Below are positions 21,776-48,147 of a stretch of 64,000 nt of DNA, piece after piece (positions within the stretch are counted from its first letter, which is position 1; each line of letters opens with the position of its first letter). This stretch comes from Hymenobacter sp. YIM 151500-1 (lineage in GTDB: Bacteria > Bacteroidota > Bacteroidia > Cytophagales > Hymenobacteraceae): contig NZ_CP110139.1 in the NCBI RefSeq assembly GCF_025979885.1, forward strand, positions 2,046,001 to 2,110,000. The letters run 5' to 3'. The notes below the pieces were generated by a model, which was not told the origin of the DNA, did not search any database, and was given only the letters and a program-made list of their open reading frames with translations. The translations under genes were made by a program, and so were the position numbers.

Positions 21776-21820
21776 AGCATGATCGAGTTAGGCCTCTAGT
21801 CTTAGCATCGGTCTTCCTAT

Positions 21821-23421: not shown

Positions 23422-23490
23422 AGCAGAGAGAGCTGCCACCACTACCTGCATTGTCTACTGGATATGGTTCAACCCTTAACGTCCAGTCCT

Positions 23491-23817
23491 ATGCAGCTTG
23501 TAGTGCTTGTTTCCGAGCAAGAATGGCTCGCGCTTCAGGTTGAGGTTGATCGGTTAGGCAAGGCTCTTGCCCAGCTCATTTCCCCACCTGCCCCTCCTGA
23601 CGAAGTATTGACCACGCGCCAAGCTGCAGCCTACATCGGCCTGAGCATTGGTGCTCTGCTGCGCGCCCGCCGTGCCGGCCGAGTTAAGGGTGTCCGCCTC
23701 AACGAAAAGGATTGGGGCTTCTACCGCTCCGTCCTCGACAAATACCCGCGCCGCTACTTCCGCGCCAACCTCTTACCTCCATCTTCTCCCAACTCACCCG
23801 ACTCCATTCCCCAATGA
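23491..23817 (+). CDS. Excisionase-like HTH protein, second copy
   Basis: The 108-residue protein has TTRQAAAYIGLSIGALLRARR and GVRLNEKDWGFYRS, closest to the left-module copy at 17570-17869. ATG 23491 (MQLVVLV) is preferred over ATG 23464 because both paralogues begin with MQ followed by the same strand. It overlaps the next gene by 4 bases. Confidence 0.75.
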   Translation: MQLVVLVSEQEWLALQVEVDRLGKALAQLISPPAPPDEVLTTRQAAAYIGLSIGALLRARRAGRVKGVRLNEKDWGFYRSVLDKYPRRYFRANLLPPSSPNSPDSIPQ

Positions 23818-26204: not shown

Positions 26205-26206
26205 CC

Positions 26207-26998
26207 ATGCCGCGCCCGCTCACCCACGCCTCCCTCTTCACCGGCCTTGGCGCCTTCGACCTAGCCGCCGAGTGGCTAGGCTGGCCCACCGTCTTCCAGG
26301 TCGAACAAAACCCATTCTGCCTCAATGTCCTCACCCGCCATTTCCCCCATGCCCACCGCCACTCCGACATCCGCACCTTCGACGCTACCCCCTACGCCGG
26401 CACAGTTGACGTGCTTACCGGCGGCTTCCCCTGCCAATCCTTCTCCCTTGCTGGAAAAGGCCAAATGGACCTCACGCTCTGGCGCCAAATGCTTCGCTGC
26501 GTGGTCGCGTGTCGTCCCGCTTGGGTCGTGGCAGAGAATGTTCGGGGCCTGCTTGCTCGTAGCCACGGGCTGGTACTCGAAGAAATCTGCGCTGACCTGG
26601 AAAATGCGGGCTATTCCGTCTTCCCGCCGCTGCTACTTCCAGCTGCTGCCGCAGACGCCGACCACCGCCGCGAACGGCTTTGGCTGGTTGCCCACACCCG
26701 TAGCCAACGACAGCCGCAACAGCACCCTGCCCCCGTCCCAGAAGAACCGGAGCCGGGGCCAATTCTGCTCCATTCCCTCGTTCCTGCTCAACCACAGCTA
26801 CGCCCCCGGTACGCCTCTCTCCGTGACGTTCTACGAGAAGCTAATGGGCTTTCCGAAGGGCTGGATTCTGCCACCCGCAACGCCGCCCTCTACGCCCTAG
26901 GCAACAGCATCCACCCCGTCATTGCCTTCAACATTCTCCGCAGTATTGCCTATATACAATGCCGAACTTTGCCAAAAACAGCGTTGAATTACCCATAA
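26207..26998 (+). CDS. DNA cytosine-5 methyltransferase (phage type)
   Basis: The 263-residue protein carries ASLFTGLGAFDLAAEWLGW (motif I), LTGGFPCQSFSLAGKG (motif IV with catalytic Cys), VVAENVRGLL (motif VI), a DHRRERLWLVAH segment (motif VIII) and ALGNSIHPVIAFNILRSI (motif X). It is the last gene of the right module. A second frame over 26325-26900 also looks conserved (see findings). It may modify element DNA against restriction. Confidence 0.85.
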   Translation: MPRPLTHASLFTGLGAFDLAAEWLGWPTVFQVEQNPFCLNVLTRHFPHAHRHSDIRTFDATPYAGTVDVLTGGFPCQSFSLAGKGQMDLTLWRQMLRCVVACRPAWVVAENVRGLLARSHGLVLEEICADLENAGYSVFPPLLLPAAAADADHRRERLWLVAHTRSQRQPQQHPAPVPEEPEPGPILLHSLVPAQPQLRPRYASLRDVLREANGLSEGLDSATRNAALYALGNSIHPVIAFNILRSIAYIQCRTLPKTALNYP

Positions 26999-27006
26999 AC
27001 TAAAAG

Positions 27007-27028
27007 AGAGCAACCTGTTGGCTGCTCT
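27007..27028. terminator. Hairpin terminator
   Basis: AGAGCAACC, loop TGTT, GGCTGCTCT, just after the cytosine methylase gene and before the convergent GmrSD-like gene. Confidence 0.5.
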
Positions 27029-27062
27029 TCTTCGGTAGGGTTAGGTTTAAATGCAAGATTAC

Positions 27063-28928
27063 TCAGCCTTTCGGCCATACCTGCGCCGCTATTTTAGCCA
27101 GTTCTTTTCCTCTTTGCTGAATGTCGTCAACGCCCCATTCATAGTCGTTGTCGAAGTCCTGGAAATAGCTGTTCAACCGCAGTTTACTCTGCTTAGCAAT
27201 AGCTGGCCGTTTTTTTGAAAAAGGCCCATTGCTTACGGAAGAATTCAACTGCGTGGTCAGCAAGGTTAAGTTACCAAGCTGGTGGCGTACCTCCTCTGCT
27301 TCCTCATCATCAATGTGGTCCCAATGCCCTTGTGCTGGCTTTTGCGGAAATACATGCTCTATGGTAAGGTCCGTTGGGAGGTGCAGACGTTCCTGGCGGT
27401 TGGTTTCCATCTGCAAATCCAGAGCTTGCAGGAACATTTGTAGCCGTGGATTATTGAGCAGCGCATATAAAGGGGCCGTCCGGCAGGCTTCTTTAAATTC
27501 TGCGTTTTCAGGCCAGCGCCCACTATCACCCGTCAGGCTGTTCAGAAACGTCTGAACAGTGCTTCTGTTAATCGCCGCTGCTGCTTCCAAAGCCTGGAGC
27601 AGATCCAAGGCAATGCGGTTGTAGTTCTTTGGCGTTAGCTCGCACACCAGCCGGCGCACGATGTACGATTCGAGGTCCGTGAAAATGCCAGCCAACGCTT
27701 TTGCATCCGTTTTATCTTTCCAACGGGTGAGCAAGCCCAACAGCACTGGGTAAAAAACGCTGGTATCCAGTACCTGCAGTCTATGTACCAGTAAGCGCAG
27801 GCGGGTAGTCTTAGGCCCCTCGAACAGCTCACGATAAGTGTCGCTGTACACACGGAGCTTCTGCAGTTCGGCCGCCACGTCTTCTCCCGCCTCGTCCAGC
27901 CACCAACGCCGAAATTCCGTGTAAAGCTGCGTAATGGGAATCTGTTCTTGGCGGCTGAGCGTCAGAAAATGGAAGAAGAACAGGTCCAGACGAGGGCGCC
28001 GTAGACGACCTTGGCGAACTTCTGCCTGCCAAAAGTCACTATGATCCGAATCATCAAACTCCCGCCAGTATTTCTTGTGCAGCCCTTCAAGAGGTAGCTG
28101 CTGCTTGCTGGCCTCTAGAAAGACGAAGTTTCTGATTAAATCTGACGGCAACAGCGGTTCACCTCGGCCGTTCAGCGACTCAAATATTACTTGCGGGTCA
28201 TCGTCGGCTTCCAGCTCCACCATCACCACCTCCAGGCGTTTGGTGATGCTTTCCAGCAACGCATCAACGCGCATGGCTATCAGTTCCTCGCTAGGCTCCG
28301 TCGGCTCATCGGCTTCCGGATCATCGGCTAGCATGTACTCTTGAAATTTGCGCGCGAAGAACAAGTAAGCTTCTACCAGATTGGCCCGCGGGTCAAATTT
28401 TCGTTTGCGGTAGCCGCGCACCAACGGGAACAGGGCATTCACCTGCGCCGCCGAGCCGGCCGTCATTACCTTCTCGAAGTCTTCCTGGTCGCCCGACGTC
28501 GGCCATACCTTGAATTGCTCGAATGTTTGGTCAGTCCGGTAGTTATTGCGCGTAAGCCGCTCAAACGTTTTTTCCACTCCCTCTACTCCCTGCCCCGCAG
28601 CTTCATCCCGCAGTGCTGTCAGTACTACCTGTAGCGTAGTGAGCCGCTGCTGGCCGTCGATAACGCTACGCGCCGGCACAGCGCGGCCCCACGTGTCCAG
28701 TGGCGCCAACACCACTGCCCCGATGAAATGATTTGGCATTTTCTTCCGCGCCCGTGCCGCTCCGCCCATAGCTCGCGCCAATTCTTCATCGGCCAGCTGC
28801 ACGATATCGTCCCATAACGGCCGCCACTGTTTGCTCTCAGTCCATACATACCGGCGCTGAAACAAGGGTACTACATGGCGGCGTTCTTGTTCAAAGATTT
28901 CCGCGACGGTTAACTTACTGGGACGCAT
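27063..28928 (-). CDS. GmrSD-like DUF262/DUF1524 protein (type IV restriction-like)
   Basis: The 621-residue protein has an N-terminal DUF262 domain with the VPLFQRRYVW and IDGQQRLTTLQ motifs (NTP binding/hydrolysis in the GmrS part). A helical middle follows, then a C-terminal DUF1524 His-Me finger nuclease, shown by TIEHVFPQKP and LGNLTLLTTQLNSSVSN. GmrSD enzymes cut modified DNA such as glucosylated hydroxymethylcytosine; related proteins (SspE, BrxU) restrict other modified phage DNA. The start at 28928 gives MRPSKLTVAEIFEQ. It is last in an operon behind a histone-like, a TIR-like and a small gene. Confidence 0.88.
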   Translation of the reverse strand: MRPSKLTVAEIFEQERRHVVPLFQRRYVWTESKQWRPLWDDIVQLADEELARAMGGAARARKKMPNHFIGAVVLAPLDTWGRAVPARSVIDGQQRLTTLQVVLTALRDEAAGQGVEGVEKTFERLTRNNYRTDQTFEQFKVWPTSGDQEDFEKVMTAGSAAQVNALFPLVRGYRKRKFDPRANLVEAYLFFARKFQEYMLADDPEADEPTEPSEELIAMRVDALLESITKRLEVVMVELEADDDPQVIFESLNGRGEPLLPSDLIRNFVFLEASKQQLPLEGLHKKYWREFDDSDHSDFWQAEVRQGRLRRPRLDLFFFHFLTLSRQEQIPITQLYTEFRRWWLDEAGEDVAAELQKLRVYSDTYRELFEGPKTTRLRLLVHRLQVLDTSVFYPVLLGLLTRWKDKTDAKALAGIFTDLESYIVRRLVCELTPKNYNRIALDLLQALEAAAAINRSTVQTFLNSLTGDSGRWPENAEFKEACRTAPLYALLNNPRLQMFLQALDLQMETNRQERLHLPTDLTIEHVFPQKPAQGHWDHIDDEEAEEVRHQLGNLTLLTTQLNSSVSNGPFSKKRPAIAKQSKLRLNSYFQDFDNDYEWGVDDIQQRGKELAKIAAQVWPKG

Positions 28929-28978
28929 AAAAGGGAAGGAAGGAGGAGGCAGTAAAAAATCAGTTGGTGCAGAAAAAT

Positions 28979-29278
28979 CTAAATCTGTTCGGGCGCACTG
29001 GGTCCGAAGCATTTGGCAAAGCATGCGCGGCACTCAGCAGCAATATGCTCAGGTAGTTCAGGCTCAATACTTATGCTGCTGCTATGCGCATTGTATTGAT
29101 GAATATAGAACTCGCCCAGCGTGGCTGGCTGGTCGTCTCCATCAGGGGCATACTTAGATTGCGTAGTGCGGAAGAAGGCCTCATGTCGTGCTTCCACGGC
29201 GGCCATACATTCTTCGAAAGCTGCCAGTTGGCGGGCTACTTCAGGGCCATAAACCAGCTCTGCAAAGGTCTTATCCAT
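28979..29278 (-). CDS. Small protein between TIR-like and GmrSD-like genes
   Basis: The 99-residue acidic protein (MDKTFAELVYGPEVARQLAA) is not recognised. It has two cysteines near the end (ECRACFAKC). It begins 7 bases after the TIR-like gene and precedes GmrSD by 50 bases, so it is part of the operon; regulator or antitoxin are possible roles. Confidence 0.6.
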   Translation of the reverse strand: MDKTFAELVYGPEVARQLAAFEECMAAVEARHEAFFRTTQSKYAPDGDDQPATLGEFYIHQYNAHSSSISIEPELPEHIAAECRACFAKCFGPSAPEQI

Positions 29279-29285
29279 ACTAGAG

Positions 29286-29999
29286 TTACGCGGCTTTTTC
29301 GGCTTCTGCTTGCTCTACTACTTGTTTGTATACACCCTCTACTATATCCATGTCCCGGTGTCCTTCTTCCAGGAAATCAGTCATCACCTTCACATACTCC
29401 GGAAAAGTCAGCTTCTCAAACCGCAGTTTGTAGCGGCCGCAGAACTCTTCCTTCCGATTTAGGAAAATCTGGTAGAGCATATGCACATAATCGGCACCCG
29501 GTAGCGGCTCTTCGTCAGCAGGAATACGCACGCTCAGCCAGTCTCGCACGCAGCTAATAATTCCTTCCACCGTGTCGCCGTGGGCACTTGGGTCTTCCCC
29601 GCCCAGGTCGGTCAGATACTTCTTGTATTCGTGTGCTTTCGTGTCGAGCACCAAGTATTCCTTTTCCAGGTCGTAGGGTTTGCCAAAATACTGGCAGCCG
29701 ATAAACACCCCTAGCTCCAACGGCATGTTATTGCGCGGCTCCTGTCCCGATACGCTGCGCGATACATCGTGAATGCCGTAGCGGCACTCCCCTATGATGT
29801 CCAGGATGCGCGGAAATCGGTAGTTCTGGGTACTGGCTTCTAAAGCGCAGCGGGCAATAAATCCGGCATGGTGAATGGTAAACACCATGGCATAAAACAG
29901 AGGCTTGTACTTGTCGTCGAAGGGACAGTTGATGAATACGTTGTAATCGTATTGCTCATGCTTCTGACGTCTGGGCGGAGCGGGACGGTGCGTTTTCAT
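29286..29999 (-). CDS. TIR-like/Rossmann-fold protein of defence-type family
   Basis: The 237-residue protein has an N-terminal strand-helix-strand unit, YDYNVFINCPFDDKYKPLFY, the RCALE motif, CRYGIHDVSRS and a NMPLELGVFIGCQYF helix. This order is like TIR domains, whose catalytic Glu lies in a similar FELG motif (here LELG). The rest (about 150-237) is helical and lacks an obvious second domain. Start ATG 29999 lies one base past the histone-like gene stop. NAD-hydrolase activity is inferred, not shown. Confidence 0.6.
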   Translation of the reverse strand: MKTHRPAPPRRQKHEQYDYNVFINCPFDDKYKPLFYAMVFTIHHAGFIARCALEASTQNYRFPRILDIIGECRYGIHDVSRSVSGQEPRNNMPLELGVFIGCQYFGKPYDLEKEYLVLDTKAHEYKKYLTDLGGEDPSAHGDTVEGIISCVRDWLSVRIPADEEPLPGADYVHMLYQIFLNRKEEFCGRYKLRFEKLTFPEYVKVMTDFLEEGHRDMDIVEGVYKQVVEQAEAEKAA

Positions 30000-30000
30000 C

Positions 30001-30447
30001 CTACTTCTTCTGGCTAGTAGCCCCTGTTGATTTCTTCGCAGGTTTGGCAGCCGCTGGCTTGGAGGCAGCTTTCTTAGGAGCAGCACTCTTTTTCACTGCC
30101 GTACTGGCCGTAGCTTTCTTAGCGGGGGTAGCCGGTTTAGAAATTGCACCGGTCGCTTTCTTTTTGCTAGCTGTGCTCCCAGTAGCAGCCGACGCTGCCG
30201 CTTTCTTGACGGCGGGCTTTTTGGTGCCTGCTGCCCCAGAAGCCGACGTAGTAGCCGCCGCGATGATGGTGGCATTTTTCCGCACGGGCCGACTGCCATA
30301 CAGCGCCCGATACTCTTCCCGCAGGGTGCCCAGCTTTTTGTCGCTGCGTGCATCCGTCCCATCCGGGTTGCGGATGGCGCCTTTGGCAAGGCCTAGCTTT
30401 TTCTCCAGGTTTCCGATTTTAATATCGGAACGGTCTTTACGTGGCAT
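30001..30447 (-). CDS. Histone H1-like Lys/Ala-rich DNA-binding protein
   Basis: The 148-residue protein has a short folded-looking N-terminus (MPRKDRSDIKIGNLEKKLGL, and a DARSDKKLGTLREEYRALYG segment) followed by a long tail of AAKK, KKPA and KKAAA repeats like bacterial H1-like proteins. The tail makes it very basic. Such proteins bind DNA non-specifically; placed first in a defence-like operon it could bind phage DNA or regulate the operon, which is an inference. Confidence 0.65.
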   Translation of the reverse strand: MPRKDRSDIKIGNLEKKLGLAKGAIRNPDGTDARSDKKLGTLREEYRALYGSRPVRKNATIIAAATTSASGAAGTKKPAVKKAAASAATGSTASKKKATGAISKPATPAKKATASTAVKKSAAPKKAASKPAAAKPAKKSTGATSQKK

Positions 30448-30779
30448 ATATCGAACGGATCAGCTGATAGCACAGGGGAATAAATGTAGTGAATAAAGCA
30501 GTTCATGTTAGCTGCTTTGTAGTACTCGGACAGATATGGCGTGCTCGGTATGCGCGACTATTTGCACTTGTATAGCTATACACCGAATAAGAAACGTGTG
30601 CTCCTGATGAGCCTGCAGGCTGTGTACCCCAAGCTGCGCCTGTCAGTGCCAAGCCAGCACACGCTACCCCTCCTTCAGCCTGAACAAATTTGCTTAACGA
30701 ACACTGTCTAAGCTGTCCAGTTTTTGGGGAGTCTTCCATGTAGCCCATGTAGATAATGCCGACGATAACCTATCCAGTG
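30448..30779. other. Intergenic, no gene seen (apart from a hairpin)
   Basis: About 330 bases between the histone-like gene and the PIN gene. Only a hairpin AAAGCAG...CTGCTTT at 30495-30518 stands out. Confidence 0.5.
30495..30518. terminator. Candidate terminator hairpin
   Basis: AAAGCAG, loop TTCATGTTAG, CTGCTTT. It lies about 260 bases after the PIN gene, possibly ending that operon. Confidence 0.4.
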
Positions 30780-31415
30780 CTACCGCTGACGGCGCTTCAT
30801 TTCTTCGTATTTGGCTAAAGACTCTTCATTCGCAGTTACGACATTGAGACCACCCACATAGAAGTCACCATCGTGGCTTACCAACCAGAGTCCATGCGCT
30901 TTGCAAAACTCAGCGTAGTACTTGTCATTGAAATCAGATTGCTTTCCATAGTTCAGCAGCATAGCAGGAACAATGGAGCTTTCTACTTCGGCCTGTAGGT
31001 AAGTAACGAAGTAGGACACTTCGTCCCAGGCAGCCAGAAACTGATTTAAAGCATCCTTATAAGGCTCAGAACCGCGGAAATGCCTTTTGAAATCAATTCG
31101 CTGGTTGCCAGTTAAGTCACCTGACGCTTGTAAGGCGGTGAGCGTACCCGGTGCTTCTCGCCATACATCGAAGCGAAGACGAAGAAAACGGTTCATGATT
31201 TCGGATACCAGCACAGCGTTTGCCACAATACAAGGCTGACCTGCTTCCTGCAACCTACGCCACAGGGCCATATAAGGTCGCATGAACGTGCGACGACTGA
31301 GCGGAGGACTAATTACCTCCAGCCATACGTTGGCATCAAAAAAATACAGCCGGCTGGGAGCCGGCTGCACAGTGTCAGGATGATAAATCCTGGGGAGATT
31401 CGCCTCATCAGCCAT
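30780..31415 (-). CDS. PIN-domain ribonuclease-like protein
   Basis: The 211-residue protein opens with LYFFDANVWLEVISPPLSR (first PIN Asp, about residues 23-41) and ends with LWLVSHDGDFYVGGLNVV, a HDGDF acid pair as in PIN toxins. Middle acid residues (SEIMNRF, DFNDKYYAEFC) fit the remaining active-site positions. The start overlaps the STAS-like stop by one base. PIN proteins usually cut RNA; here there is no AbrB/Phd antitoxin partner, and the STAS and ATPase genes upstream may control it instead. Confidence 0.75.
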   Translation of the reverse strand: MADEANLPRIYHPDTVQPAPSRLYFFDANVWLEVISPPLSRRTFMRPYMALWRRLQEAGQPCIVANAVLVSEIMNRFLRLRFDVWREAPGTLTALQASGDLTGNQRIDFKRHFRGSEPYKDALNQFLAAWDEVSYFVTYLQAEVESSIVPAMLLNYGKQSDFNDKYYAEFCKAHGLWLVSHDGDFYVGGLNVVTANEESLAKYEEMKRRQR

Positions 31416-31765
31416 TAGTATCCAGCTAATTCAGCGTCCCATGCTTCAGCAGTCCGCTGACGATAGTCAGCATCCAATGCCAATTTTTTAACCTCTGCCA
31501 ACTTGATGTTGGCATAAGGAATGTGCTCCAGGCCTTCGATGGTGAGCAACGAATCGAATTCGGGATGTACCGACAACACCACGCCTACGGTGGCGTGCAG
31601 AAAGTCCGACATCACATGACGCATCCCTGCAAACGATAGTATGAGCGGTTGACGTTTTTCCGCTGCTTGGCGCAGCACGTCTAACACCGGCTGGCCCTCG
31701 AAATCGAAAGCCGCTACTTCTTTATTAAGAAGCTCCTTCACGGAAACTACGGCCATCATGTTCAT
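31415..31765 (-). CDS. STAS-like DUF4325 protein
   Basis: The 116-residue protein resembles the STAS-like DUF4325 family: an N-terminal strand/helix, PLILSFAGMRHVMSDFLHAT, and an acidic C-terminal end. STAS-like folds act as phospho-switch partners of anti-sigma-type kinases. It sits between an HATPase-type protein and a PIN nuclease, so a partner-switch controlling the nuclease is plausible (inference). Start could also be ATG 31759 or 31756. Confidence 0.65.
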   Translation of the reverse strand: MNMMAVVSVKELLNKEVAAFDFEGQPVLDVLRQAAEKRQPLILSFAGMRHVMSDFLHATVGVVLSVHPEFDSLLTIEGLEHIPYANIKLAEVKKLALDADYRQRTAEAWDAELAGY

Positions 31766-31864
31766 AGAATGAGATTGTTAAGAAAAGCCTTGGGAAACGA
31801 AATCATGCAACCGACGTGCCATAATACAGGCGGCAGTGCATGCACGGTAAGGGTTCTTATAGCG

Positions 31865-31872
31865 CAAAGGTA
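31865..31872 (-). promoter_or_regulatory. Candidate -7 element for the STAS-PIN genes
   Basis: TACCTTTG on the minus strand matches TAnnTTTG, just after the ATPase stop and about 100 bases before the STAS-like start. It may give the STAS-PIN pair its own promoter. Confidence 0.3.
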
Positions 31873-31887
31873 ACCGAATTTGTTACT

Positions 31888-32775
31888 TCAGCAAGAGGCC
31901 TGACCGCAATTGAAAATGGCGTGAACTACACTACCTTGGAACGGGGGAACCGCTACTGCTGAGTACGTTACCCGTCCCGCAGCATCGCGTTTTCCGGTCA
32001 AATAATAACCGTCACTACATAGGTGAAGTTCCCCGCCGCGGCCGATACAGTAGTTGCGCAACATCTTCAGGCCAAAGCCTCCGTTACGACGTGGCAGGCT
32101 ACTGTTGTGGCCAGTTAGAGCCCACCGAAGAGCGTTTTCAGGCAGAACCACCGGACTCGGAGTCTGGCGGGTAAACTCCTGTATCGGCTTCAGATACCCT
32201 TGACCCAGATCTACCAGCGTGAACTTGAGTTGCTGGGTTTTGGGGTAGTACTGGCCGCACACAAATACCGGCTGGTCGGTATTGGCATGGCGCTTCACGT
32301 TGGTAAAAATTTCGAGTAGGTGCGCCACGATCTTACCTTGCTCGTCCTCGGTGCAAGCAGTACCTAAATCCGGCTGTTGTAGCAAATAGTTCGCGACGTA
32401 AGACTCAAAACCAGCCACATCCATCGGGTCGAAATGCTGCATCCGCACAGAGGTAGTGCTGCCAGTGCACACATCAGTCTCGCCTTGTATAAAGCCATTC
32501 CGTAGCAATACGCCAAACCGCTGCTGGACTACCTCACCCGCTACGCAGAATGATAACCCGCGCTGCTGCTCCAGGTCATGCAGCATAGCACCCAGCAAAG
32601 CGCATTGGTTAGCGTCCAACCAGTTTAGGCTAGCCAGATCCAGCAACACCAGCTGATCTTGCAGTAGTAGGCCGCGGCTATGCCACTGTACGAGCTGAGC
32701 AAATCCCGCTGGGTCGGTACGGATGGCCCCCTGCAAAGGGAGCGGTTGCGAAGATTCAAGCGTTAGGACGGACAC
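31888..32775 (-). CDS. STAS-like plus histidine-kinase-type ATPase protein
   Basis: The 295-residue protein has an N-terminal STAS-like half (LVLLDLASLNWLDANQCALL, about residues 42-61) and a C-terminal GHKL ATPase half. The ATPase half shows N-box EIFTNVKRHAN, G1-type LVDLGQGYLKP and G2-type NGGFGLKMLRNYC. It lacks a phospho-acceptor His domain, so it is an anti-sigma-like ATPase rather than a sensor kinase. It lies upstream of DUF4325 and PIN genes, forming a three-gene module. Confidence 0.75.
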   Translation of the reverse strand: MSVLTLESSQPLPLQGAIRTDPAGFAQLVQWHSRGLLLQDQLVLLDLASLNWLDANQCALLGAMLHDLEQQRGLSFCVAGEVVQQRFGVLLRNGFIQGETDVCTGSTTSVRMQHFDPMDVAGFESYVANYLLQQPDLGTACTEDEQGKIVAHLLEIFTNVKRHANTDQPVFVCGQYYPKTQQLKFTLVDLGQGYLKPIQEFTRQTPSPVVLPENALRWALTGHNSSLPRRNGGFGLKMLRNYCIGRGGELHLCSDGYYLTGKRDAAGRVTYSAVAVPPFQGSVVHAIFNCGQASC

Positions 32776-32882: not shown

Positions 32883-33521
32883 TCAGCAGGAGCACTCAGC
32901 CAACTCCTTCACTTGAACTGGGCTGATCAGATTCATGCGTTTGATATAGCTGCTAACTGTCAAACGATGAACTTTCAAGCGTCGCCCAATCTCGCTAACG
33001 GAAACTTGTTGTTGTAACAGGGTCTGAATCTTTGCTTCTTTTCCGGAGAGCTTTAGTTTTTCAGACTTTCTACCCCTTGGCCTTCCCAGCACCACGCCTT
33101 CTGCCTTCTTGCGGGCCAAGGCTTCTTTCGTGCGCTGTGATATAAGGGTTCGTTCAATTTCTGCCGCCAACCCGAAGGCGAAGGCTAGCACTTTAGAGTT
33201 GATGTTGTTGCCCAACTCGTACCGCTCTTTCACGGTGAAGACCTGAATATCGTTCTCCATACAGTCATGCAGGAAGCTCATGATTTGCATCAGGTTACGG
33301 CCGATGCGCGATAGTTCCGATACGATAAGCACATCCCCTCGCTTCAGGCGCTTAACCAGCAACCCAAACTTTCTGTCGTTCATCTTGCCGCCTCCGGTGG
33401 CGGTTTCCTCCAGCCACTTATCAATGGTAAGGCGGTGGTGCTGGGCGTACTGCTGAATCTCGTAGCGCTGGTTTTCTACTGTTTGGCGGTCCGTGCTTAC
33501 TCGAACGTAGGCTATAATCAT
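32883..33521 (-). CDS. Serine recombinase/DNA invertase
   Basis: The 212-residue protein is of the resolvase/invertase family (Hin, Gin, Bacteroides Mpi). MIIAYVRVSTDRQTVENQRY contains the catalytic Ser (residue 9); DVLIVSELSRIGRNLMQIM and the long E-helix (NINSKVLAFAFGLAAEIERT) are typical. A C-terminal HTH (SVSEIGRRLKVHRLTVSSYI) follows. ATG 33521 is the canonical start; an upstream ATG would add 11 hydrophobic residues. It is 53 bases from the first inverted repeat arm (33574) of the methylase switch, so it is the probable invertase for that locus. Confidence 0.85.
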   Translation of the reverse strand: MIIAYVRVSTDRQTVENQRYEIQQYAQHHRLTIDKWLEETATGGGKMNDRKFGLLVKRLKRGDVLIVSELSRIGRNLMQIMSFLHDCMENDIQVFTVKERYELGNNINSKVLAFAFGLAAEIERTLISQRTKEALARKKAEGVVLGRPRGRKSEKLKLSGKEAKIQTLLQQQVSVSEIGRRLKVHRLTVSSYIKRMNLISPVQVKELAECSC

Positions 33522-33573
33522 GAGAAGAAGGGCGAAAATGAGCCGGCAAAGCAACCGTCATTTTCTGTATAAT

Positions 33574-33640
33574 TTATACGACCCCTTCTTCGCGGCAGGG
33601 ACATCGACCCCTACCACATCCGCTTCGCCGACCAATGGCT
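33574..33640. repeat. Inverted repeat IR1, left arm (67 bp)
   Basis: Identical to the reverse complement of 34878-34944. It encodes the conserved RPLLRGRDIDPYHIRFADQW segment in both the silent cassette and the active methylase. Confidence 0.9.
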
Positions 33641-33854
33641 AATAGATACTTACAATGGCAAGCTGGTCGATGTAATAAATCCAACAACCAAGCAAATTCG
33701 CAAAGTACGTGTTGGTCGGATTGATGTTGTTAAGGACTACCCTGCTATTTACCAGCATCTTTCGTCGTTCGGTGACGAAATTAGAAACAGACAGGATCAG
33801 GGGGAGCATTGGACTAATCTGCGGAACTGCGCCTATGCAGAAGAGTTTGCCTCA

Positions 33855-34075
33855 CCGAAGATCATCTACCCGAACATGACGTCGGTGCTGCCCTTCGTCT
33901 ACGACAAAGGAGCGTTTTATACTAACCAGAAATGCTTCATCATCACTGGTGAGCGTTTAGGCTACCTAACGGCGTTTTTCAATTCAAAGCTTTTCCGCTA
34001 CTGCTTCAAAAGCAACTTCCCAGAGTTACCAGGAGTTACACGCGAACTGAGCAAGGTGTTCTTTGATCAGATACC
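33855..34075. repeat. Inverted repeat IR2, left arm (221 bp)
   Basis: Nearly identical to the reverse complement of 34434-34654, with at least one mismatch near the start. It encodes KIIYPNMTSVLPFVYDKGAF through FFDQIPV. Confidence 0.88.
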
Positions 34076-34204
34076 GGTAAAACCGGTATCTGATGAACAG
34101 GAAGCAGTATTCATGAGCAGGGTTGAATGGGTGCAAACGGCGAAACAGAAAGGTGTAGACACCACCCACATCGAAGAAGAAATTGAACTACTCTTAGCTG
34201 ACCT

Positions 34205-37200
34205 CTACGGATTGGAAGCTCCTGAAAGGGATGCGGTAACAGCCTCTACAGATTGATCATCAGCATTGATAACCTCCAATAGCTCGTTGGCGTCAAGTTC
34301 GTACAGGGCGCATAATTGCTCTTCAACTGTTGCTTCCAGCTGAGAGCTATCCAGTCCTTTCCGCTTGGCCAATTGAATTTGCTCTACAGCTTGTTCAAAC
34401 CAAGCGGCCTGTTCACTTGTGGGCTGCTTGACGGGTATCTGATCAAAGAACACCTTGCTCAGTTCGCGTGTAACTCCTGGTAACTCTGGGAAGTTGCTTT
34501 TGAAGCAGTAGCGGAAAAGCTTTGAATTGAAAAACGCCGTTAGGTAGCCTAAACGCTCACCAGTGATGATGAAGCATTTCTGGTTAGTATAAAACGCTCC
34601 TTTGTCGTAGACGAAGGGCAGCACCGACGTCATGTTCGGGTAGATAATCTTCGGCTTCTCGAACTCTTCGTAGTAGTTAGATCCAAAACGTTGTAGAGCA
34701 TACCATTCATAGCGAATGCCTGTTTCAGCAGCATTTCTTGCACTCAGCTGTTGCTTAAACGAAGCTAAGTGTTCATACACAGCGGGGTACTGTGCAGCGA
34801 ATGCCTCTTCAGCAGCAGTAGAACTGCCTTTAATGCTCGCATCTCGATGCAAGGGAAAGTGCCAAGGGATGAACAGCAGCCATTGGTCGGCGAAGCGGAT
34901 GTGGTAGGGGTCGATGTCCCTGCCGCGAAGAAGGGGTCGTATAATTTCGGCTGATTTGGGGTCAGACGCGATAAGTTCGTCCTTCTTCTGGCTGGTTACT
35001 ACAAATGCCGGGTTTAAACCTGTCAAAATCCCCCTAAAGATTTTGATAGACCAGTTCTTCAGTGGTACGCCCTGTGCTTCTACTTTCTGCTTTATTTTAA
35101 CCTTCGAGCCATCCATCACAACCCAGCTTGTGGAAGAAAAGCCGCTTTCTATTACCGTGCGAGTTTCCAAGTACGGCCGCAGGGCGCGTAGTTGCCCGAA
35201 GTCCCGGTTGATTTTGCAAACGGCTGTTTGACGTTGGTTTGCATCCTTGGTCAGCACGATGATGTTGGCCAACAGAACAGCGTTGTCGAACAGCTGATAG
35301 TCGTTGAAGTCGAGCAGCGTAAGCGGGTTCGTTTTCTCCACAAAGAAAGTGCGCAGCTTCTCGCCGTAGTTGGCCCGAAGCCACTTGTTCGAGGTGATGT
35401 ACGCCAAGCAGCCACCAGGCTTCAGCATCTGGTAGCCTTTCTCGTAGAAGAGGGCATAGATGTCACCCGTCCGGGTGAATGTTTCGTAGCCGGCTTGCTG
35501 CAACAGGTCGCAATCAGCGCCCATTTTCTGCAGCTGGATGTAGGGCGGATTACCGATGACAATATCAAACCCGCCCTGCTCAAAGACATTACGGAAGTAC
35601 AGATGCCACAAGAAATAGGGCCGTTCGGTGCTATCCTGGAGCTTATCCAGCCGCTGCATAATGCCCTCTAAGCGTTCAACGATCTGCTGACATGAGTCTA
35701 CCACCCGTTGCTGTTTTGCGCGGGCCCGTTCCTTCTGCTGGCGCTTTGCGGCCGTATCCTTCGGGTCCAAGCGAACAGTCTGCAGCACCTTTTCGGCTTC
35801 TGCTAGCCTGATATGTGCTTGGTTCAGCTCCAGCTCTACGTTGTAATGCAAGTGCTGGTGAATACGCTCCGAAATCATCCGCCTCAACTCGGCTTTCGGT
35901 GGTGAATTCTTTTGGGGGCCATCACCCACGTTGAAGTAGCTGTCAAGCAACTCTTCCATTTCCTCGCTTTGCTTCTGCTGAGCCTCCTGGCGCACCAAGT
36001 CTAACTTGGTTTGCTGAGCCACCGAAGTCTGAAAAAAGCCCAACTGTTGTCCACCTTCCACCAAGGTTTTGGGCTCGTAGATGGCTCGTACTTGGTGCGT
36101 GGGCTTCACGTGGTGCAGCGGAATACCCTCGAACGATTCCAATAATGAGTTACCCTGCATGATTTTGTAATCCAGGTTGGGCAACGGGTGAGGCCGGTCC
36201 TCATCCACCACCAGCGCCAGCCAAAAGCGCAGCCGGGCTATATCCACCGCACCACGCTCCAGGTCCACGCCGTGGATGGTATGCTGGATGATGTGCTTTT
36301 TTACCTGTACCGGGTCGAAGGTGAGGCCGTGAGCCAGGTAGGGAAACAAATGGCGCCGCGCCGAGAAAATTTCCTGCAGCATCCCCATGGGGAAGGCCCC
36401 CGAGCCGATGGCCGGGTCGCATACCGTAATGTCGCGCAGCAGTTCGTCGGCGTATTGGGCATGAGGCCGCAGCGGCACCGTCACGTTCTGGTGCTGCACC
36501 AGTTCCACTACATCAGCCCTCGAAACACCATGAGGCACCAAACGCCGAGTTAGATGCTCCACCAGCGCTTCTTGGCACATGTACTGCACGATTTCGCGCG
36601 GCGTGTAGAAGGCCCCTTTCTCGCGGTTTTCCTCCAGTAGGTTCTCAAAAATATGGCCCAACATTTCCGGGTCAATACCTACCTCGTGGTCATCTGGCCG
36701 GTTTTCGTCAATGGTGAAGTTGTATTGCGCAAAAAACTCCAACAGGTCTTTGAAGAACTCAGCCGGGAAGTCTAGCGCCGCTGCTTGCGCATCGTCGTTA
36801 TCAAACAAGCCACCATTCAAGTAAGGCACCCGGCAAGCTTGGGTCATGCCCCCAACCTGAAAGCTGTGGTTAGGGCGGTCAGGGTTATTGAGTGTGCGGA
36901 AAAACAGCTCGGCTAATGCTTGGCTATGAAAATGTTCTTTTTCGGGAAAACGCTCGTAGAGGTCGAGCAAGAAGCTTTGGTTACCTCCCTTCCAATCTGC
37001 TGTGGTAGTAGGGCAACCTAGCCAGCCTTTGCGTTGCAGGAAATGCAGAAATACCAACCTGCCAAGCAGCTTTTTAGCGAAGTCACGGATGGGCTTCTCC
37101 TGCTTTTCTTTCTCCGCAGCCTTCTCGGGTACCGGTAGGCCTGGCAAAAACACTTCGCGGTGATGCAGCGCGAGGTACTTCCAGAACCGTTCGTAGTGCG

Positions 37201-37834
37201 CTTTGTAGCGGTTGAAGAACTCTTTGTTGAGTTTATCGACCGAGAAAGCATCTTGCACGTGCTTTAGCTCCGCTACTGGCTGTTGCGCTGCCAGCATCTG
37301 CAGCCGCTCCGTGGCTGTGCTGCAAGCCTCTTGCTGGCCCAGCACGTATGTGTAGCGCTTGCTGTTGGTAGACGTGGTAACGACTTCTCCCGTTTCCTCA
37401 TCCAAGCTGCTTTGCTGGGTAAGAAAGCTAAAGCGGTAAGCGTGGGGCTGAGTAGGATCGTGGAAAAAGGCCAAAAGCCCGTCAGCGCGCTGGTCGTCCG
37501 TTAGATTGAACACCATGTTGCGCAGCCCCACGCGGTTGCGGGCAATATCTACGGTGCCAGGTGCCAGCTCCACTTCCACTACGGCCAGCTGAGATTTAGC
37601 TCCAAATAAATCAGCGGCTCCCAGCTGCACCACGCCAAGCTGGCGTTTACCGGTCACCTTTGCTGTGTAACGCTCTTCTATCTCCAGCGGCACCGGCATA
37701 GGAAACCACTTTATCTGCTCGCGTCCGAACATGTGAGGCAAGAGCGTTTCATGCCATGTGTTGGAACTGAAAGGTTGACGCAGATACTCTTTTAACTGGT
37801 TGTTGGGTAGGCCGGAAGTAGCGTGAGTGGGCAT
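34205..37834 (-). CDS. Large Eco57I-like N6-adenine methylase with invertible C-terminus
   Basis: The 1,209-residue protein has an N-terminal region of unknown role with LAVVEVELAPGTVDIARNRV, a possible degenerate PD-(D/E)XK. A methylase core follows: motif X EKGAFYTPREIVQYM (about 400), motif I ITVCDPAIGSGAF, motif IV DIVIGNPPYIQLQKMG, and a helical charged insert between I and IV. The C-terminal target-recognition region (about 960-1,209) is split by IR1 (residues 964-985) and IR2 (1,060-1,133) into two exchangeable parts: the segment between them and the tail. The start is ATG 37834. It follows the PLD-helicase gene by about 20 bases, so the two form one system. Confidence 0.85.
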   Translation of the reverse strand: MPTHATSGLPNNQLKEYLRQPFSSNTWHETLLPHMFGREQIKWFPMPVPLEIEERYTAKVTGKRQLGVVQLGAADLFGAKSQLAVVEVELAPGTVDIARNRVGLRNMVFNLTDDQRADGLLAFFHDPTQPHAYRFSFLTQQSSLDEETGEVVTTSTNSKRYTYVLGQQEACSTATERLQMLAAQQPVAELKHVQDAFSVDKLNKEFFNRYKAHYERFWKYLALHHREVFLPGLPVPEKAAEKEKQEKPIRDFAKKLLGRLVFLHFLQRKGWLGCPTTTADWKGGNQSFLLDLYERFPEKEHFHSQALAELFFRTLNNPDRPNHSFQVGGMTQACRVPYLNGGLFDNDDAQAAALDFPAEFFKDLLEFFAQYNFTIDENRPDDHEVGIDPEMLGHIFENLLEENREKGAFYTPREIVQYMCQEALVEHLTRRLVPHGVSRADVVELVQHQNVTVPLRPHAQYADELLRDITVCDPAIGSGAFPMGMLQEIFSARRHLFPYLAHGLTFDPVQVKKHIIQHTIHGVDLERGAVDIARLRFWLALVVDEDRPHPLPNLDYKIMQGNSLLESFEGIPLHHVKPTHQVRAIYEPKTLVEGGQQLGFFQTSVAQQTKLDLVRQEAQQKQSEEMEELLDSYFNVGDGPQKNSPPKAELRRMISERIHQHLHYNVELELNQAHIRLAEAEKVLQTVRLDPKDTAAKRQQKERARAKQQRVVDSCQQIVERLEGIMQRLDKLQDSTERPYFLWHLYFRNVFEQGGFDIVIGNPPYIQLQKMGADCDLLQQAGYETFTRTGDIYALFYEKGYQMLKPGGCLAYITSNKWLRANYGEKLRTFFVEKTNPLTLLDFNDYQLFDNAVLLANIIVLTKDANQRQTAVCKINRDFGQLRALRPYLETRTVIESGFSSTSWVVMDGSKVKIKQKVEAQGVPLKNWSIKIFRGILTGLNPAFVVTSQKKDELIASDPKSAEIIRPLLRGRDIDPYHIRFADQWLLFIPWHFPLHRDASIKGSSTAAEEAFAAQYPAVYEHLASFKQQLSARNAAETGIRYEWYALQRFGSNYYEEFEKPKIIYPNMTSVLPFVYDKGAFYTNQKCFIITGERLGYLTAFFNSKLFRYCFKSNFPELPGVTRELSKVFFDQIPVKQPTSEQAAWFEQAVEQIQLAKRKGLDSSQLEATVEEQLCALYELDANELLEVINADDQSVEAVTASLSGASNP
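34434..34654. repeat. Inverted repeat IR2, right arm (221 bp)
   Basis: The partner of 33855-34075. Recombination here swaps only the last part of the methylase (34205-34433). Confidence 0.88.
34878..34944. repeat. Inverted repeat IR1, right arm (67 bp)
   Basis: The partner of 33574-33640, identical over 67 bp. Recombination here swaps the target-recognition segment and tail together. Confidence 0.9.
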
Positions 37835-37853
37835 GTAAGTAGTAGTTAGCTGA

Positions 37854-40800
37854 CTACACAAAGGATTCAGAAATGATGATGCGCGGCAAGATTACGGCCG
37901 TTGCGGGGACGGCCTCAGCCGGTGAAGGTTCCGCAACAATCGAAACAGGAGGTGAAGTTGGTTCCGCTTCCAACGGGTAGCCCTGCAGGATGTGCATTAG
38001 TTGGCTTAGCAACACTGGTATTTTGAACTTGGCTTTTTTGTGAGCCGCCTGCAGTTTGTTTACATCGCGCTGCAGCTGTTGAAACTGTCCCTTGGATATA
38101 GCTTGCTTGGCTGCTCTGATGCGTTGCGTTTCCTCCGGGTCTAGGTGTACTACTTTGAGACAGGCATCTAGAAAGTCCAACGCCTTTTTCTCGTTGGGGG
38201 GGAGCTTGGTTGGGGTCAGCGCCATAGGCCGGGCTGCCTCTAGTTGTATTTGTCGTGCAAAGGCTTCGGTAGCGGCACGTACTTGCTGGTGATGACTCTC
38301 CGGTAGTGAGTGAGGAGCTTCGTCGGGTGTTGCCTCAAATAGCTTTACTGCTTCCAGAAACGACTTTTCCTCTAATTGCCCATCCGGCTTGCAGGCGTAA
38401 AAAACGTCGCGCAATGGGTTCCGCAAATACAACAGTGTCGAGCCGACAACAGGCTCTTTACGGTCCGTCCGAGCAGTGCGGGCCCGAAGTGGTAACTGCT
38501 TGATGCGGCGGAATTCGGCGTTATTTTCCTCGCGGAACTTGCGTAGCCAAAGCAAGTAGTTCAAGCGTAAGTCCCGTTCTTCTTCAGGGTTCTTGTCAAA
38601 CAGCCCGAAAGAGTTGGTTTCTTCCTCCGGTGAATACACTTCGCTGTCTTCGCCCAGTGCTTCGTGAAAAGCCTGCAGCTTCATGAACGCTTTCCGTTCC
38701 AACTCGATGTTTGAGTTGACTTGCGCGGTCGGGAAAAAGTTATGTACGAATATTTCGTCGGCTTCAGTACCAATTCGGTTTACACGTCCAATGCGTTGCA
38801 TCAAGCGCGTTGAATTCCAAGGGGTATCATAATTGACAATAACATTAGCGCGGTGCAGGTTGATGCCTTCAGCCAAAACCTCCGTGGCGATGATAATATC
38901 GTAGTCGTTAGCGCGTTGTTCTTTGGGTAAGTTCGCATCAAAATTTGCTCGAACAACCGGCATAAGTGCAGCCCGGTTGCTGCCATCTACCACCAGTACC
39001 CGACGCGTAGAGTGCTCTTGCAGCCTATTAGCGAGGTAAGACGTGGTATCCTTTGCTTCCGAGAAAATAACCAGCTGTTGATTTCGGTTGCGTTGCTTAT
39101 CGAAAAGCTCCGGCTCCAGCTGCGTCAGAAACTCATCTAGTTTAGGATCAAACCCCTTGACTTCTTCCCAGGCCGAAGTCAGTTCGCGCAACAAGCTTAG
39201 GTCGCGCTGTAGCCCTCCTAAGAAACCAGGGACAAAATCTTCAGGTGTGCAAATCTCAATACTGGGGTCACTCAGCTGTTGGCTCAGCAGCAGGGCTTCT
39301 AGCTCCTCTTCTCTGCCTTCCAGTACGTATTCGGTAACCGACAAACTAGGAGCAATATAGATTTTGCCCTGTTCGAACATGGTAACCATGGCCTGCGTGG
39401 CATCACAAAACTTGCCTAGCGAGTTACGAAACGCATGGAAGCTGCTGTCAATGCGTTTGACTAGCAGCGTCCGCATGATGTGCGCTAGTGACTGCGAAAT
39501 GCGGTCTGCGTAGCGGTACTTGCTCTTTTTAGGCTCGGTAAGGTGTTGAATGGCCCGGTAACGGTTGTATGTCAGCTCATGGGCCAGAACGAAAATAGTA
39601 CGATCAAACAGTGCTTCCAGCTTGGGCGGTAGCTGGTAAAGAATCTTATGCGGTTTGCCTACGTGCGGGAATTTTATTCCCTGCTCCTTCAGGTCTTCCT
39701 TGTATTCAGGGTGCGCCCGTAAGTCAGTGCGAGTGCGCCGCACAATAATGGGTTCCAAAACTTTGTCGCGTATAGCGGCATACACTTGCTTGATGCCCGC
39801 TCTAACCAAAGCGGTGTTTTCTTGTCTACGCAGCTTATCGTAAGCATCGATCTGCTGGCGGAAAAAGTGCTGCAGGTTGCCTACTTCCAGCGTCGAGTCT
39901 TTCGCGTCTTGGAACAGGTAAACAAGGTTGGCTATATCCTGCGGCCGATTGTTGAGAGGGGTAGCCGAAATAAGAATTACGCGCTTGCGGTCAAGCTGGC
40001 CAGCTAAAGCACCTGAGGTAACGCGACGACGCGTTGGTGTCTTGCAAAGCTTTTGCAACTCGCCATACATGCCGGCAGTGTCGTTACGAAACTTATGAGC
40101 TTCGTCCACGATGATAAGGTCGTAGTCTTCGGCCGGATGTGGAAGCTTGTGCAAGCTTCCATTGGTGAGCACATCGTAGTGCCCGATGTTGGTAAAGCTG
40201 AACTTGCGGATTGCCTCTCGCCAGTTGGATTCGAGAGCGGGAGGGGTAATGATGAGTGCCCGACCGATGTATTCAGTCGTGTGCAAGTGAATGAGGTATT
40301 GCCGGGCAATCAGTGTGCCCACAATAGTTTTGCCTAGACCCACTACATCAGCCAAGAAGAAGCCAAAATGGTCTTTCATCTTGCGGTAGCCGTCGTTTAC
40401 GGCATCAATCTGGTACTTCAGGCGCTTGAAGCCCTGTGGCAAATCAGCGGCTGCACTCGGGTCATACTCTACCGCTTTTCCGAAGTATTCCACCAAGAGC
40501 TTAACGTACAACTCAAACGGCGTAATGGGCGCGTTAGGGTCACCCAGATAGGTCTTCTCCCGCACAGTGCGCGTCAAGTCAGCTGGCAATACATCAACTG
40601 ACTGGCGCCATAGGGTTTCGAAGGTTTCCGTGGCAAAAGCCACATCAGCGTAATCCTTCAGTTCGACGTTGAACTCAAAATTATGTGCTAGCCCCGACGC
40701 GCTCAGGTTACTGGAGCCAGTGATAACGGAACCAGAGTTATGTGAATTGAAAGGCGCTGGGCGGAAAATGTAGATTTTTGAGTGTAAGCGTTGGCTAGGA

Positions 40801-41177
40801 TGTGCCTTAATCTTGATTTGCCCCGACGCAACACGGTCTACCAGCCAGAAAATGCCGTCTTCAACCTCCTTTCTATATTCTGCTTGCTGAATGTCGCGGG
40901 CGAAGTCCTTCAAGGCTTCTTCGCGTGCTTCCCCAGACTTACCCATAAAATGTAGACCTTGGTGATGCGCTTGCTGTATAAGCGGGTCCACGTTGATACC
41001 AACCAGTATACGTACTTCTGGTACAGTCTCCAGCCACTTTTGTATTTGGAAGTAACCCGAAGCACGGAAGTAGCCTACTAATGCATCGAAAGCCTGAACA
41101 GTAGTGTTTTCAAGTACGCCTGCAAACTTGGCTAGAAGAGTGTTTCCTTCCGAGTTGGTAAAGAACTTTGTATTCAT
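37854..41177 (-). CDS. PLD-domain SNF2-type helicase (restriction/defence effector)
   Basis: The 1,107-residue protein opens with a PLD-like domain whose HSKIYIF (H-x-K) lies at about residue 130, within ITGSSNLSASGLAHNFEFN context. A superfamily 2 SNF2-like helicase follows: FFLADVVGLGKT (Walker A), YDLIIVDEAHKFRN (Walker B), VILISATPLNNRP (motif III), and RLMQRIGRVNRIG (motif VI). A helical C-terminal region ends it. PLD-helicases next to methylases occur in restriction and DISARM-like defence; no other DISARM or BREX gene is seen here. It is transcribed just before the methylase. Confidence 0.88.
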   Translation of the reverse strand: MNTKFFTNSEGNTLLAKFAGVLENTTVQAFDALVGYFRASGYFQIQKWLETVPEVRILVGINVDPLIQQAHHQGLHFMGKSGEAREEALKDFARDIQQAEYRKEVEDGIFWLVDRVASGQIKIKAHPSQRLHSKIYIFRPAPFNSHNSGSVITGSSNLSASGLAHNFEFNVELKDYADVAFATETFETLWRQSVDVLPADLTRTVREKTYLGDPNAPITPFELYVKLLVEYFGKAVEYDPSAAADLPQGFKRLKYQIDAVNDGYRKMKDHFGFFLADVVGLGKTIVGTLIARQYLIHLHTTEYIGRALIITPPALESNWREAIRKFSFTNIGHYDVLTNGSLHKLPHPAEDYDLIIVDEAHKFRNDTAGMYGELQKLCKTPTRRRVTSGALAGQLDRKRVILISATPLNNRPQDIANLVYLFQDAKDSTLEVGNLQHFFRQQIDAYDKLRRQENTALVRAGIKQVYAAIRDKVLEPIIVRRTRTDLRAHPEYKEDLKEQGIKFPHVGKPHKILYQLPPKLEALFDRTIFVLAHELTYNRYRAIQHLTEPKKSKYRYADRISQSLAHIMRTLLVKRIDSSFHAFRNSLGKFCDATQAMVTMFEQGKIYIAPSLSVTEYVLEGREEELEALLLSQQLSDPSIEICTPEDFVPGFLGGLQRDLSLLRELTSAWEEVKGFDPKLDEFLTQLEPELFDKQRNRNQQLVIFSEAKDTTSYLANRLQEHSTRRVLVVDGSNRAALMPVVRANFDANLPKEQRANDYDIIIATEVLAEGINLHRANVIVNYDTPWNSTRLMQRIGRVNRIGTEADEIFVHNFFPTAQVNSNIELERKAFMKLQAFHEALGEDSEVYSPEEETNSFGLFDKNPEEERDLRLNYLLWLRKFREENNAEFRRIKQLPLRARTARTDRKEPVVGSTLLYLRNPLRDVFYACKPDGQLEEKSFLEAVKLFEATPDEAPHSLPESHHQQVRAATEAFARQIQLEAARPMALTPTKLPPNEKKALDFLDACLKVVHLDPEETQRIRAAKQAISKGQFQQLQRDVNKLQAAHKKAKFKIPVLLSQLMHILQGYPLEAEPTSPPVSIVAEPSPAEAVPATAVILPRIIISESFV

Positions 41178-45646: not shown

Positions 45647-45650
45647 GACG

Positions 45651-48145: not shown

Positions 48146-48147
48146 GC

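What the first reader, a model, noticed from the sequence alone, without database searches (positions are those of the whole stretch)
33574..34944. Invertible specificity cassette of a large methylase
The methylase gene (minus strand) and a promoterless cassette (plus strand) face each other tail to tail. They share two pairs of inverted repeats: IR1, 67 bp identical (33574-33640 / 34878-34944), and IR2, 221 bp nearly identical (33855-34075 / 34434-34654). Between IR1 and IR2, and after IR2, the encoded proteins differ completely. Both repeats keep reading frame, and both arm pairs are centred at about 34255-34259. Exchange at IR1 swaps recognition segment plus tail; exchange at IR2 swaps only the tail. 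Together four enzyme forms are possible. A serine invertase gene lies 53 bases away. BREX PglX and type I HsdS genes elsewhere show inversion of specificity, but this enzyme-helicase pair is not one I recognise.
Basis: partly seen in the sequence, partly recalled or inferred. Interest (0 to 1): 0.92.

Follow-up and report, generated by a model that had tools for sequence, protein, structure and literature searches.

The report
Invertible target-recognition switch of a methylase
Next to a DNA-marking enzyme gene in a Hymenobacter-type bacterium lies a silent, reversed spare for the part of the enzyme that reads DNA, flanked by matching repeats and a DNA-flipping enzyme gene, so the cell can probably flip between two target sequences; similar layouts occur in related bacteria.

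Summary
The repeats are real: IR1 is 67/67 nt identical, IR2 has a 212-nt identical core. The plus-strand cassette is an intact, startless frame for an alternative TaqI_C specificity domain. It faces an Eco57I-type methylase paired with a PLD-nuclease/SNF2 helicase; an Mpi-family serine invertase gene lies about 53 bp from IR1. Overlapping samples of 390, 395 and 204 genomes gave 14 further loci with invertase, opposed silent cassette and methylase. Cassettes begin near the same codons: nine at site A (aa ~895), five including the window at site B (aa ~973), one elsewhere. In one relative the only exact runs of 15 nt or more are 23, 33 and 24 nt, at A, B and C. Best reading: a specificity switch inverted at IR1. 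Inversion is unproven: no reads, and the window lacks the site-A motif. Inversion switching is known for type I HsdS and, as I recall, predicted for type II systems: a new variant of a known kind.

The parts
32883..33521 (-). Mpi-family serine DNA invertase; likely start ATG 33519-33521 (mechanical ORF from TTG 33554)
   Evidence: NCBIfam NF009949 310.7 bits, cutoff 272; Pfam Resolvase 2.8e-32; start read from sequence
33574..33640 (+). IR1, cassette-side arm (codons for IRPLLRGRDI...ADQWL; position B)
   Evidence: 67/67 identical to 34878-34944 inverted
33573..34256 (+). Silent, startless specificity cassette, 227 codons open, stop TGA 34254-34256; alternative TaqI_C domain
   Evidence: no stop; Pfam TaqI_C 41.4 bits, cutoff 26.5
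33641..33863 (+). Alternative first-half recognition segment (TRD1, 'beta' type) and adjoining diverged codons
   Evidence: 13 of 57 aligned residues identical to the expressed segment; same motif class is in the expressed position in H. actinosclerus L036
33864..34075 (+). IR2, cassette-side arm, exact core (TRD2 segment)
   Evidence: 212 nt exact match to 34434-34645 inverted
34434..34645 (-). IR2, methylase-side arm, exact core (methylase aa ~1073-1143)
34646..34877 (-). Expressed first-half recognition segment (TRD1, 'alpha' type) and adjoining diverged codons
   Evidence: aligned to the CamA segment that holds Arg425, Gln438, Trp439, Arg441
34878..34944 (-). IR1, methylase-side arm (methylase aa 973-995)
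34205..37861 (-). Eco57I-type adenine methylase with C-terminal TaqI-like specificity domain, 1218 aa from the mechanical TTG start
   Evidence: Pfam Eco57I 1.3e-38, TaqI_C 6.9e-11; PADLOC REase_MTase_IIG 2e-139
37854..41177 (-). PLD-type nuclease / SNF2 helicase partner, 1107 aa; its end overlaps the mechanical start of the methylase by 8 bp
   Evidence: Pfam Helicase_C, SNF2-rel_dom, PLDc_2; HxK...N...E, Walker A and DEAH/DESH kept in 22 of 22 rows I chose to align

Best explanation
It is a two-position specificity switch for a methylase that probably works with the adjoining PLD-nuclease/SNF2-translocase as a two-gene restriction-modification (defence) system. The Mpi-family invertase next door inverts 33574-34944 at IR1. 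This exchanges the expressed 3' end of the methylase gene for the silent one in frame, giving a form of about 1199 aa in place of 1218 aa. The exchange replaces the first half of the target-recognition domain (TRD1), keeps a near-identical second half (TRD2) and swaps a homologous tail, so the two forms should recognise motifs that share some positions and differ in others. Shown: repeats, frames, domain content, recurrence of the parts and of the exchange boundaries in relatives. Inferred: that inversion happens, that this invertase does it at IR1, that the motif changes, and that helicase and methylase act together. IR2 is most likely kept identical by gene conversion or homologous exchange and is at most a minor crossover region.
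For: Repeats and frame. Both ends encode TaqI_C. Recurrence: of 30 invertase places examined, the window's own included (19 rows, 8 more, 3 more), 15 lie beside an opposed silent TaqI_C cassette and methylase, 2 at contig ends, and at 13 none was found in the stretch fetched. In 14 of the 15 the invertase reads away from the cassette. Cassettes start near site A (aa ~895) in 9, site B (aa ~973-977) in 5 including the window, elsewhere in 1. In L107 the only exact runs of 15 nt or more are 23, 33 and 24 nt, at A, B and C, against 52% overall identity; 0 of 5000 shuffles match the longest. L110 has the same B island as IR1 (68 nt at aa 973-995). TRD1 motif classes alpha, beta and gamma each occur with several TRD2 types, and in 10 of 14 loci typed the expressed and silent copies fall in different TRD1 classes. 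The TRD1 segment aligns to CamA residues that contact bases; CamA and M.BseCI are tied top structural matches (Z 17.1 over 356 residues at 8.3 A; Z 17.0 over 375 at 8.3 A).
Against: No read or second-strain evidence of inversion. The site-A motif (held-out sites rank in the top two of their locus in 6 of 7) is absent from the window; the window's IR1 candidate scores only in the top 0.4% of positions with a matrix from sites A and C. In the tree the window's invertase falls outside the clade that holds 12 of the 15 cassette invertases. L138 has no significant island (256 of 5000 shuffles as high), L136 and L139 only weak ones (75 and 59 of 5000). Some islands lie outside A-C: 23 nt in L082 and 25 nt in L135 at aa 1190-1198, 18 nt in L135 at 949-955, 20 nt in L136 at 1088-1094. 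At 13 of 30 places no such cassette was found, so the family also does other work.
Confidence: 0.72

Rival explanations
1. The exchange is real but made by homologous recombination (RecA) between the long repeats, above all IR2; the neighbouring invertase is incidental.
For: IR2 has 212 nt identical and IR1 67 nt, long enough for homologous exchange (my judgement); no site-A motif in the window. Long identical blocks in L055, L056, L081, L082, L083 suggest ongoing homogenisation.
Against: Islands of 19-33 nt at fixed codons in L083, L107, L110, L137 look too short for efficient homologous exchange. The five opposed cassettes first met through the methylase alone (G143, G144, G211, G447, G510) each proved to have the invertase beside them. 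A truncated cassette in L086 has none.
Confidence: 0.15
2. The cassette is a one-way donor for gene conversion, or a decaying duplicate, and does not invert.
For: IR2 identity looks like recent conversion; a relative (L086, G494) holds a truncated cassette without an invertase relative in the 16 kb fetched; the L083 cassette frame is interrupted.
Against: 227 open codons with a proper end in the window, and long open cassettes in the relatives aligned, L083 and the short L136 apart; two repeat pairs in frame; neighbouring invertase.
Confidence: 0.08
3. The invertase acts on some other nearby or distant site, such as a promoter, as Mpi of Bacteroides fragilis does, and its position next to the cassette is chance.
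For: Mpi inverts 13 regions including seven capsule promoters (PMC4747536, passages); at 13 of 30 invertase places no cassette was found.
Against: Same neighbourhood at 15 places in several families of the phylum, beyond the window's own class.
Confidence: 0.05

Closest known systems
Invertible type I specificity genes (hsdS), e.g. in pneumococcus, mycoplasma and (as recalled) Bacteroides fragilis
   Same: Silent specificity copies, inverted repeats inside coding sequence, often a linked recombinase, in-frame exchange
   Different: There the exchanged protein is a separate HsdS subunit; here it is the C-terminal TaqI_C domain of the methylase itself, and the nearby recombinase is a serine invertase of the Mpi family
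Gene-altering programmed inversions (Milman, Yelin, Kishony 2023, NAR 51:553; only reference-list entries seen; contents recalled, paper not held)
   Same: As I recall, predicts type II restriction-modification genes as a newly targeted family
   Different: I could not check whether this enzyme-helicase class, the three exchange positions or the Mpi-family link are described
Master invertase Mpi of Bacteroides fragilis
   Same: The invertase passes the NCBIfam Mpi model
   Different: [quoted passage not shown] here one local coding cassette
M.BseCI, CamA, M.TaqI (adenine methylases with TaqI-like recognition domain)
   Same: Catalytic and recognition domains
   Different: These chains are 393-585 aa and lack the long N-terminal region; that they have no cassette, invertase or helicase partner is recalled
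TRD movement in Helicobacter pylori type I and IIG S genes (PMC3077401, passages)
   Same: Recognition segments move as modules at flanking repeats
   Different: Recombination between alleles in a separate S subunit; no silent opposed cassette with invertase in the passages seen for H. pylori
DISARM (DrmD, DrmMI), BREX (PglX), PADLOC 'HKD+Snf2' candidate
   Same: Related helicase and methylase domains
   Different: Scores far below the curated cut-offs for DrmD and PglX

Membership tests
Mpi-family serine invertase | Reaches NCBIfam NF009949 cut-off | tested here: met
   310.7 bits, cut-off 272
Mpi-family serine invertase | Inverts DNA at its sites | not testable with these tools
   needs experiment
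TaqI_C specificity domain (expressed and silent copies) | Pfam PF12950 gathering score | tested here: met
   42.9 and 41.4 bits, cut-off 26.5
Type IIG restriction enzyme-methylase | N6-adenine methylase with fused recognition domain | tested here: met
   Eco57I and TaqI_C; NPPY in 22 of 22 rows aligned
Type IIG restriction enzyme-methylase | Fused catalytic nuclease domain | tested here: inconclusive
   no nuclease Pfam in the N-terminal region; no invariant D...ExK seen by eye in the stretch printed for 22 rows
BREX PglX | NCBIfam BREX MTaseX cut-offs (400-900 bits) | tested here: not met
   75.5, 68.4, 61.4, 20.7 bits
DISARM | DrmD cut-off (610 or 950 bits) | tested here: not met
   155.3 and 75.8 bits
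Type I HsdS inversion system | Exchanged protein is a separate HsdS subunit | tested here: not met
   recognition domain is fused to the methylase; Pfam hits of methylase and cassette hold no type I S family
Invertible coding switch (conservative site-specific inversion) | Inverted repeats in coding sequence, opposed silent copy, in-frame exchange, linked recombinase | tested here: met
Invertible coding switch (conservative site-specific inversion) | Both orientations found in one population | not testable with these tools
   no reads available

The most novel reading that the evidence does not exclude
A phylum-wide module in which Mpi-type invertases shuffle the recognition domain of a two-gene PLD-helicase/methylase defence system at up to three short sites embedded in the coding sequence (A before the domain, B at its start, C between its halves), so that first and second recognition halves can be exchanged separately and up to eight DNA arrangements, several with different motifs, arise per locus. 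The window would be a reduced form that keeps B.
Probability: 0.4. Interest if true: 0.75.

Novelty: new variant of a known kind. Interest (0 to 1): 0.6.

Why it matters
If true, it extends inversion-driven specificity switching from type I HsdS subunits to a fused methylase recognition domain that works beside a helicase-nuclease. It predicts where such proteins can be cut and rejoined (positions reused in many relatives), which bears on engineering new methylase specificities. It also predicts paired motifs that share the part read by TRD2 and differ in the part read by TRD1, which methylome sequencing of one culture could test directly.

Tried and rejected
Four enzyme specificities from four DNA forms: set aside, because TRD2 is shared and the tails are homologous. 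A common site motif in the window: with a site-A matrix the best positions in the IR1 and IR2 regions rank 55th and 59th in the window; with an A+C matrix 17th and 43rd, the 17th (33582, minus) straddling the outer edge of IR1 where the arms diverge, so not a shared site; the candidate inside IR1 is in the top 0.4%. I therefore infer the IR1 crossover from position, not motif. A single clade for cassette invertases: rejected; the label needs 6 changes on the tree (shuffled mean 11.1, 0 of 500 as low); 12 of 15 fall in one 15-row clade (support 83/83) with two others and one contig-end row; the window's does not. L045 (Ignavibacteriota) was labelled 'other' in that tree although it has a different kind of cassette. 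BREX and DISARM membership: not met. The 13 places without a cassette were judged only in the stretch fetched, several short or cut by contig ends (L119 4.8 kb, L116 9.5 kb, L112 10.8 kb). The structure models are modest (mean pLDDT 67.7 and 61.2), so I use them only as support; the cassette model's best matches are Z 6.9 to M.BseCI and Z 6.7 to CamA, which is middling.

Literature: searches listed no title or abstract start on an invertible Eco57I/TaqI_C methylase with a helicase partner; I read only passages of eight papers. The library lacks most subscription papers and lacks Milman 2023, so this is no claim that it is not in print.

Full report
Observation. The cassette 33573-34253(+) is open for 227 codons, is preceded in frame by TAA, and has no in-frame ATG before 33876, so it is not expressed as it stands. 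The cassette and methylase reading frames overlap tail to tail by about 50 bp. G+C of the cassette is 0.47 against 0.58 for the window.

Genes. The methylase (34205-37861, -) has Pfam Eco57I and, at residues 976-1144, TaqI_C; the cassette also has TaqI_C above cut-off. The PADLOC best hit is a type IIG model. Upstream is a PLD plus SNF2 helicase (37854-41177, -); its HxK...N...E, Walker A and DEAH/DESH motifs are kept in 22 of 22 rows that I chose to align. That this PLD motif pattern resembles the BfiI nuclease is recalled. The invertase (32883-33521, -) passes the NCBIfam Mpi model. BREX and DISARM models are hit only far below cut-off. The neighbourhood holds a tyrosine integrase, two S24 peptidases, a GmrSD enzyme and a partial cytosine methylase, which suggests a defence island (inference).

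Relatives by methylase. In the family 27 of 204 genomes have a match at E 1e-60, the window's own included, and in the order sample 110 of 390 at 1e-20. In named genomes 19 loci were confirmed, 18 of them with the helicase within about 2 kb of the methylase. One same-genus genome, G011, has a contig of the same length as a Hymenobacter actinosclerus record, hence my inference that the window is Hymenobacter.

Relatives by invertase. Searches with the invertase gave 19 rows in 16 of 390 order genomes, 9 rows in 8 of 395 phylum genomes and 5 rows in 5 of 204 family genomes; the samples overlap. That is 30 different places, the window's own included. Wider stretches show an opposed silent TaqI_C cassette plus methylase at 15, contig ends at 2 (L108, L109), and no cassette in the stretch fetched at 13. 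Besides the window, five of the 15 (G143, G144, G211, G447, G510) were first met through the methylase, so the two searches are not independent. In 14 of 15 the invertase reads away from the cassette; L141 is the exception. A helicase relative at 37.8% identity or more lies at 10 of 15 (Runella limosa counted through L039), distant ones (23-32%) near two (L138, L139), none was seen at L056, L082 and L135; in L135 the contig begins 328 bases before the methylase frame, so its absence there says little.

Exchange boundaries. Codon-guided comparison of expressed and silent copies (14 loci; Runella limosa compared by BLAST) shows exact DNA islands mostly at three positions of the reference protein: A, aa 894-902; B, aa 967-995; C, aa 1064-1075. 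At A the island starts within two bases of AGCG in L055, L056, L081, L082, L083, L107, L110 and L141 (8 of the 9 cassettes that begin there; in L135 it starts later), and L083, L107 and L110 narrow it to 19-23 nt. L107 has three islands only (23, 33, 24 nt). The window's IR1 (aa 973-995, 67 nt) coincides with the B islands of L110 (68 nt) and R. limosa (64 of 65 nt). Islands that do not fit: 23 nt in L082 and 25 nt in L135 at aa 1190-1198, 18 nt in L135 at 949-955, 20 nt in L136 at 1088-1094, and the window's own IR2, which begins just after C. Shuffling codons reached the longest observed run in 0 of 5000 for 10 of 14 loci, and in 4, 75, 256 and 59 of 5000 for L135, L136, L138 and L139. Held-out site-A matrices rank the real sites in the top two of the locus in 6 of 7 cases and 4th-5th in L110. 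In the loci then held, homologues without the site score at most 11.9 against 18.9-27.4 with it, a partly circular comparison; the window (7.7) and Runella (9.3) are among those without.

What the exchange changes. Between IR1 and IR2 the two copies share 13 of 57 aligned residues; the IR2 segment 79 of 81; the tail 27 of 56. Three motif classes of the first segment (alpha, beta, gamma; simple classes of my own) occur with several types of the second in expressed and silent copies, and 10 of 14 loci carry different first-segment classes in the two copies. The window's silent class stands in the expressed position in other species, such as H. actinosclerus (L036). M.BseCI and CamA are the closest solved relatives by sequence (E 2.3e-16 and 5.3e-14) and by fold. 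Reading the printed alignment, CamA Arg425, Gln438, Trp439 and Arg441, reported to contact bases (PMC8187626, passages), fall in the first segment; Tyr455, Lys456, Ser472 and Ala473 fall in the second; Ser514, Ile517 and Tyr521 lie just past the end of the alignment (CamA 508 = aa 1122) and are placed in the second segment (to aa 1143) by extrapolation; Gln346 and Ile349 lie before IR1, in the part that does not change. Hence the prediction that the two forms read partly shared motifs, and that an IR2 exchange changes little.

Mechanism. The most likely course is inversion of 33574-34944 by the adjoining invertase. Steps shown: anatomy, frame, domain content, recurrence. Steps inferred: inversion, its agent, its effect on the motif, joint action with the helicase. 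Doubts: no reads; site A absent from the window; the window's invertase not in the main cassette clade.

Comparison with what is known. Inversion among hsdS genes is well documented (PMC5903667, PMC11868660, passages). Milman and colleagues 2023 is cited in papers of which I saw passages; that it predicts type II systems is recalled and unchecked. Movement of recognition domains in H. pylori type I and IIG genes is described in PMC3077401 (passages). I therefore file this as a new variant of a known kind, with a bolder three-site reading left open.

Noticed in passing
L045:7911-12947 (Ignavibacteria MAG): A more distant version: the silent copy (358 aa, minus strand) begins just before the catalytic NPPY motif, with an 18-nt shared island, so an exchange would replace part of the catalytic domain as well as recognition; an invertase relative (50% identical) adjoins it.
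   Followed up: partly
L086:8443-9036 (G494): 71-nt perfect inverted repeat at position B with a truncated cassette and a methylase that ends early; no invertase relative was found in the 16-kb stretch: looks like a decayed switch.
   Followed up: partly
L061/L111 (G496, contig length equals a Runella limosa record): Methylase tail appears interrupted by a transposase-like frame and the contig ends near there; the B island (64 of 65) and a 24-nt C island remain.
   Followed up: partly
L107:10248-11540 (G491): An open frame of 431 codons in the opposite direction splits the methylase gene, with 27-nt inverted ends at 10202-10228 and 11546-11572: probably an inserted element.
   Followed up: no
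window 18233-32775: Probable defence or mobile island: tyrosine integrase 19297-20595, S24 peptidases 18233-19093 and 21821-22750, GmrSD 27063-29033, partial C5 methylase 26207-26998, PIN-like (below cut-off) and STAS-like small genes 30780-31765.
   Followed up: no
window 44579-51493: Two DUF2931 genes, a Tle1-like phospholipase and, further on, a VgrG-like baseplate protein.
   Followed up: no
L112-L120, L140, L142-L144: Thirteen relatives of the invertase with no methylase cassette found in the stretch fetched; what they invert was not studied.
   Followed up: no
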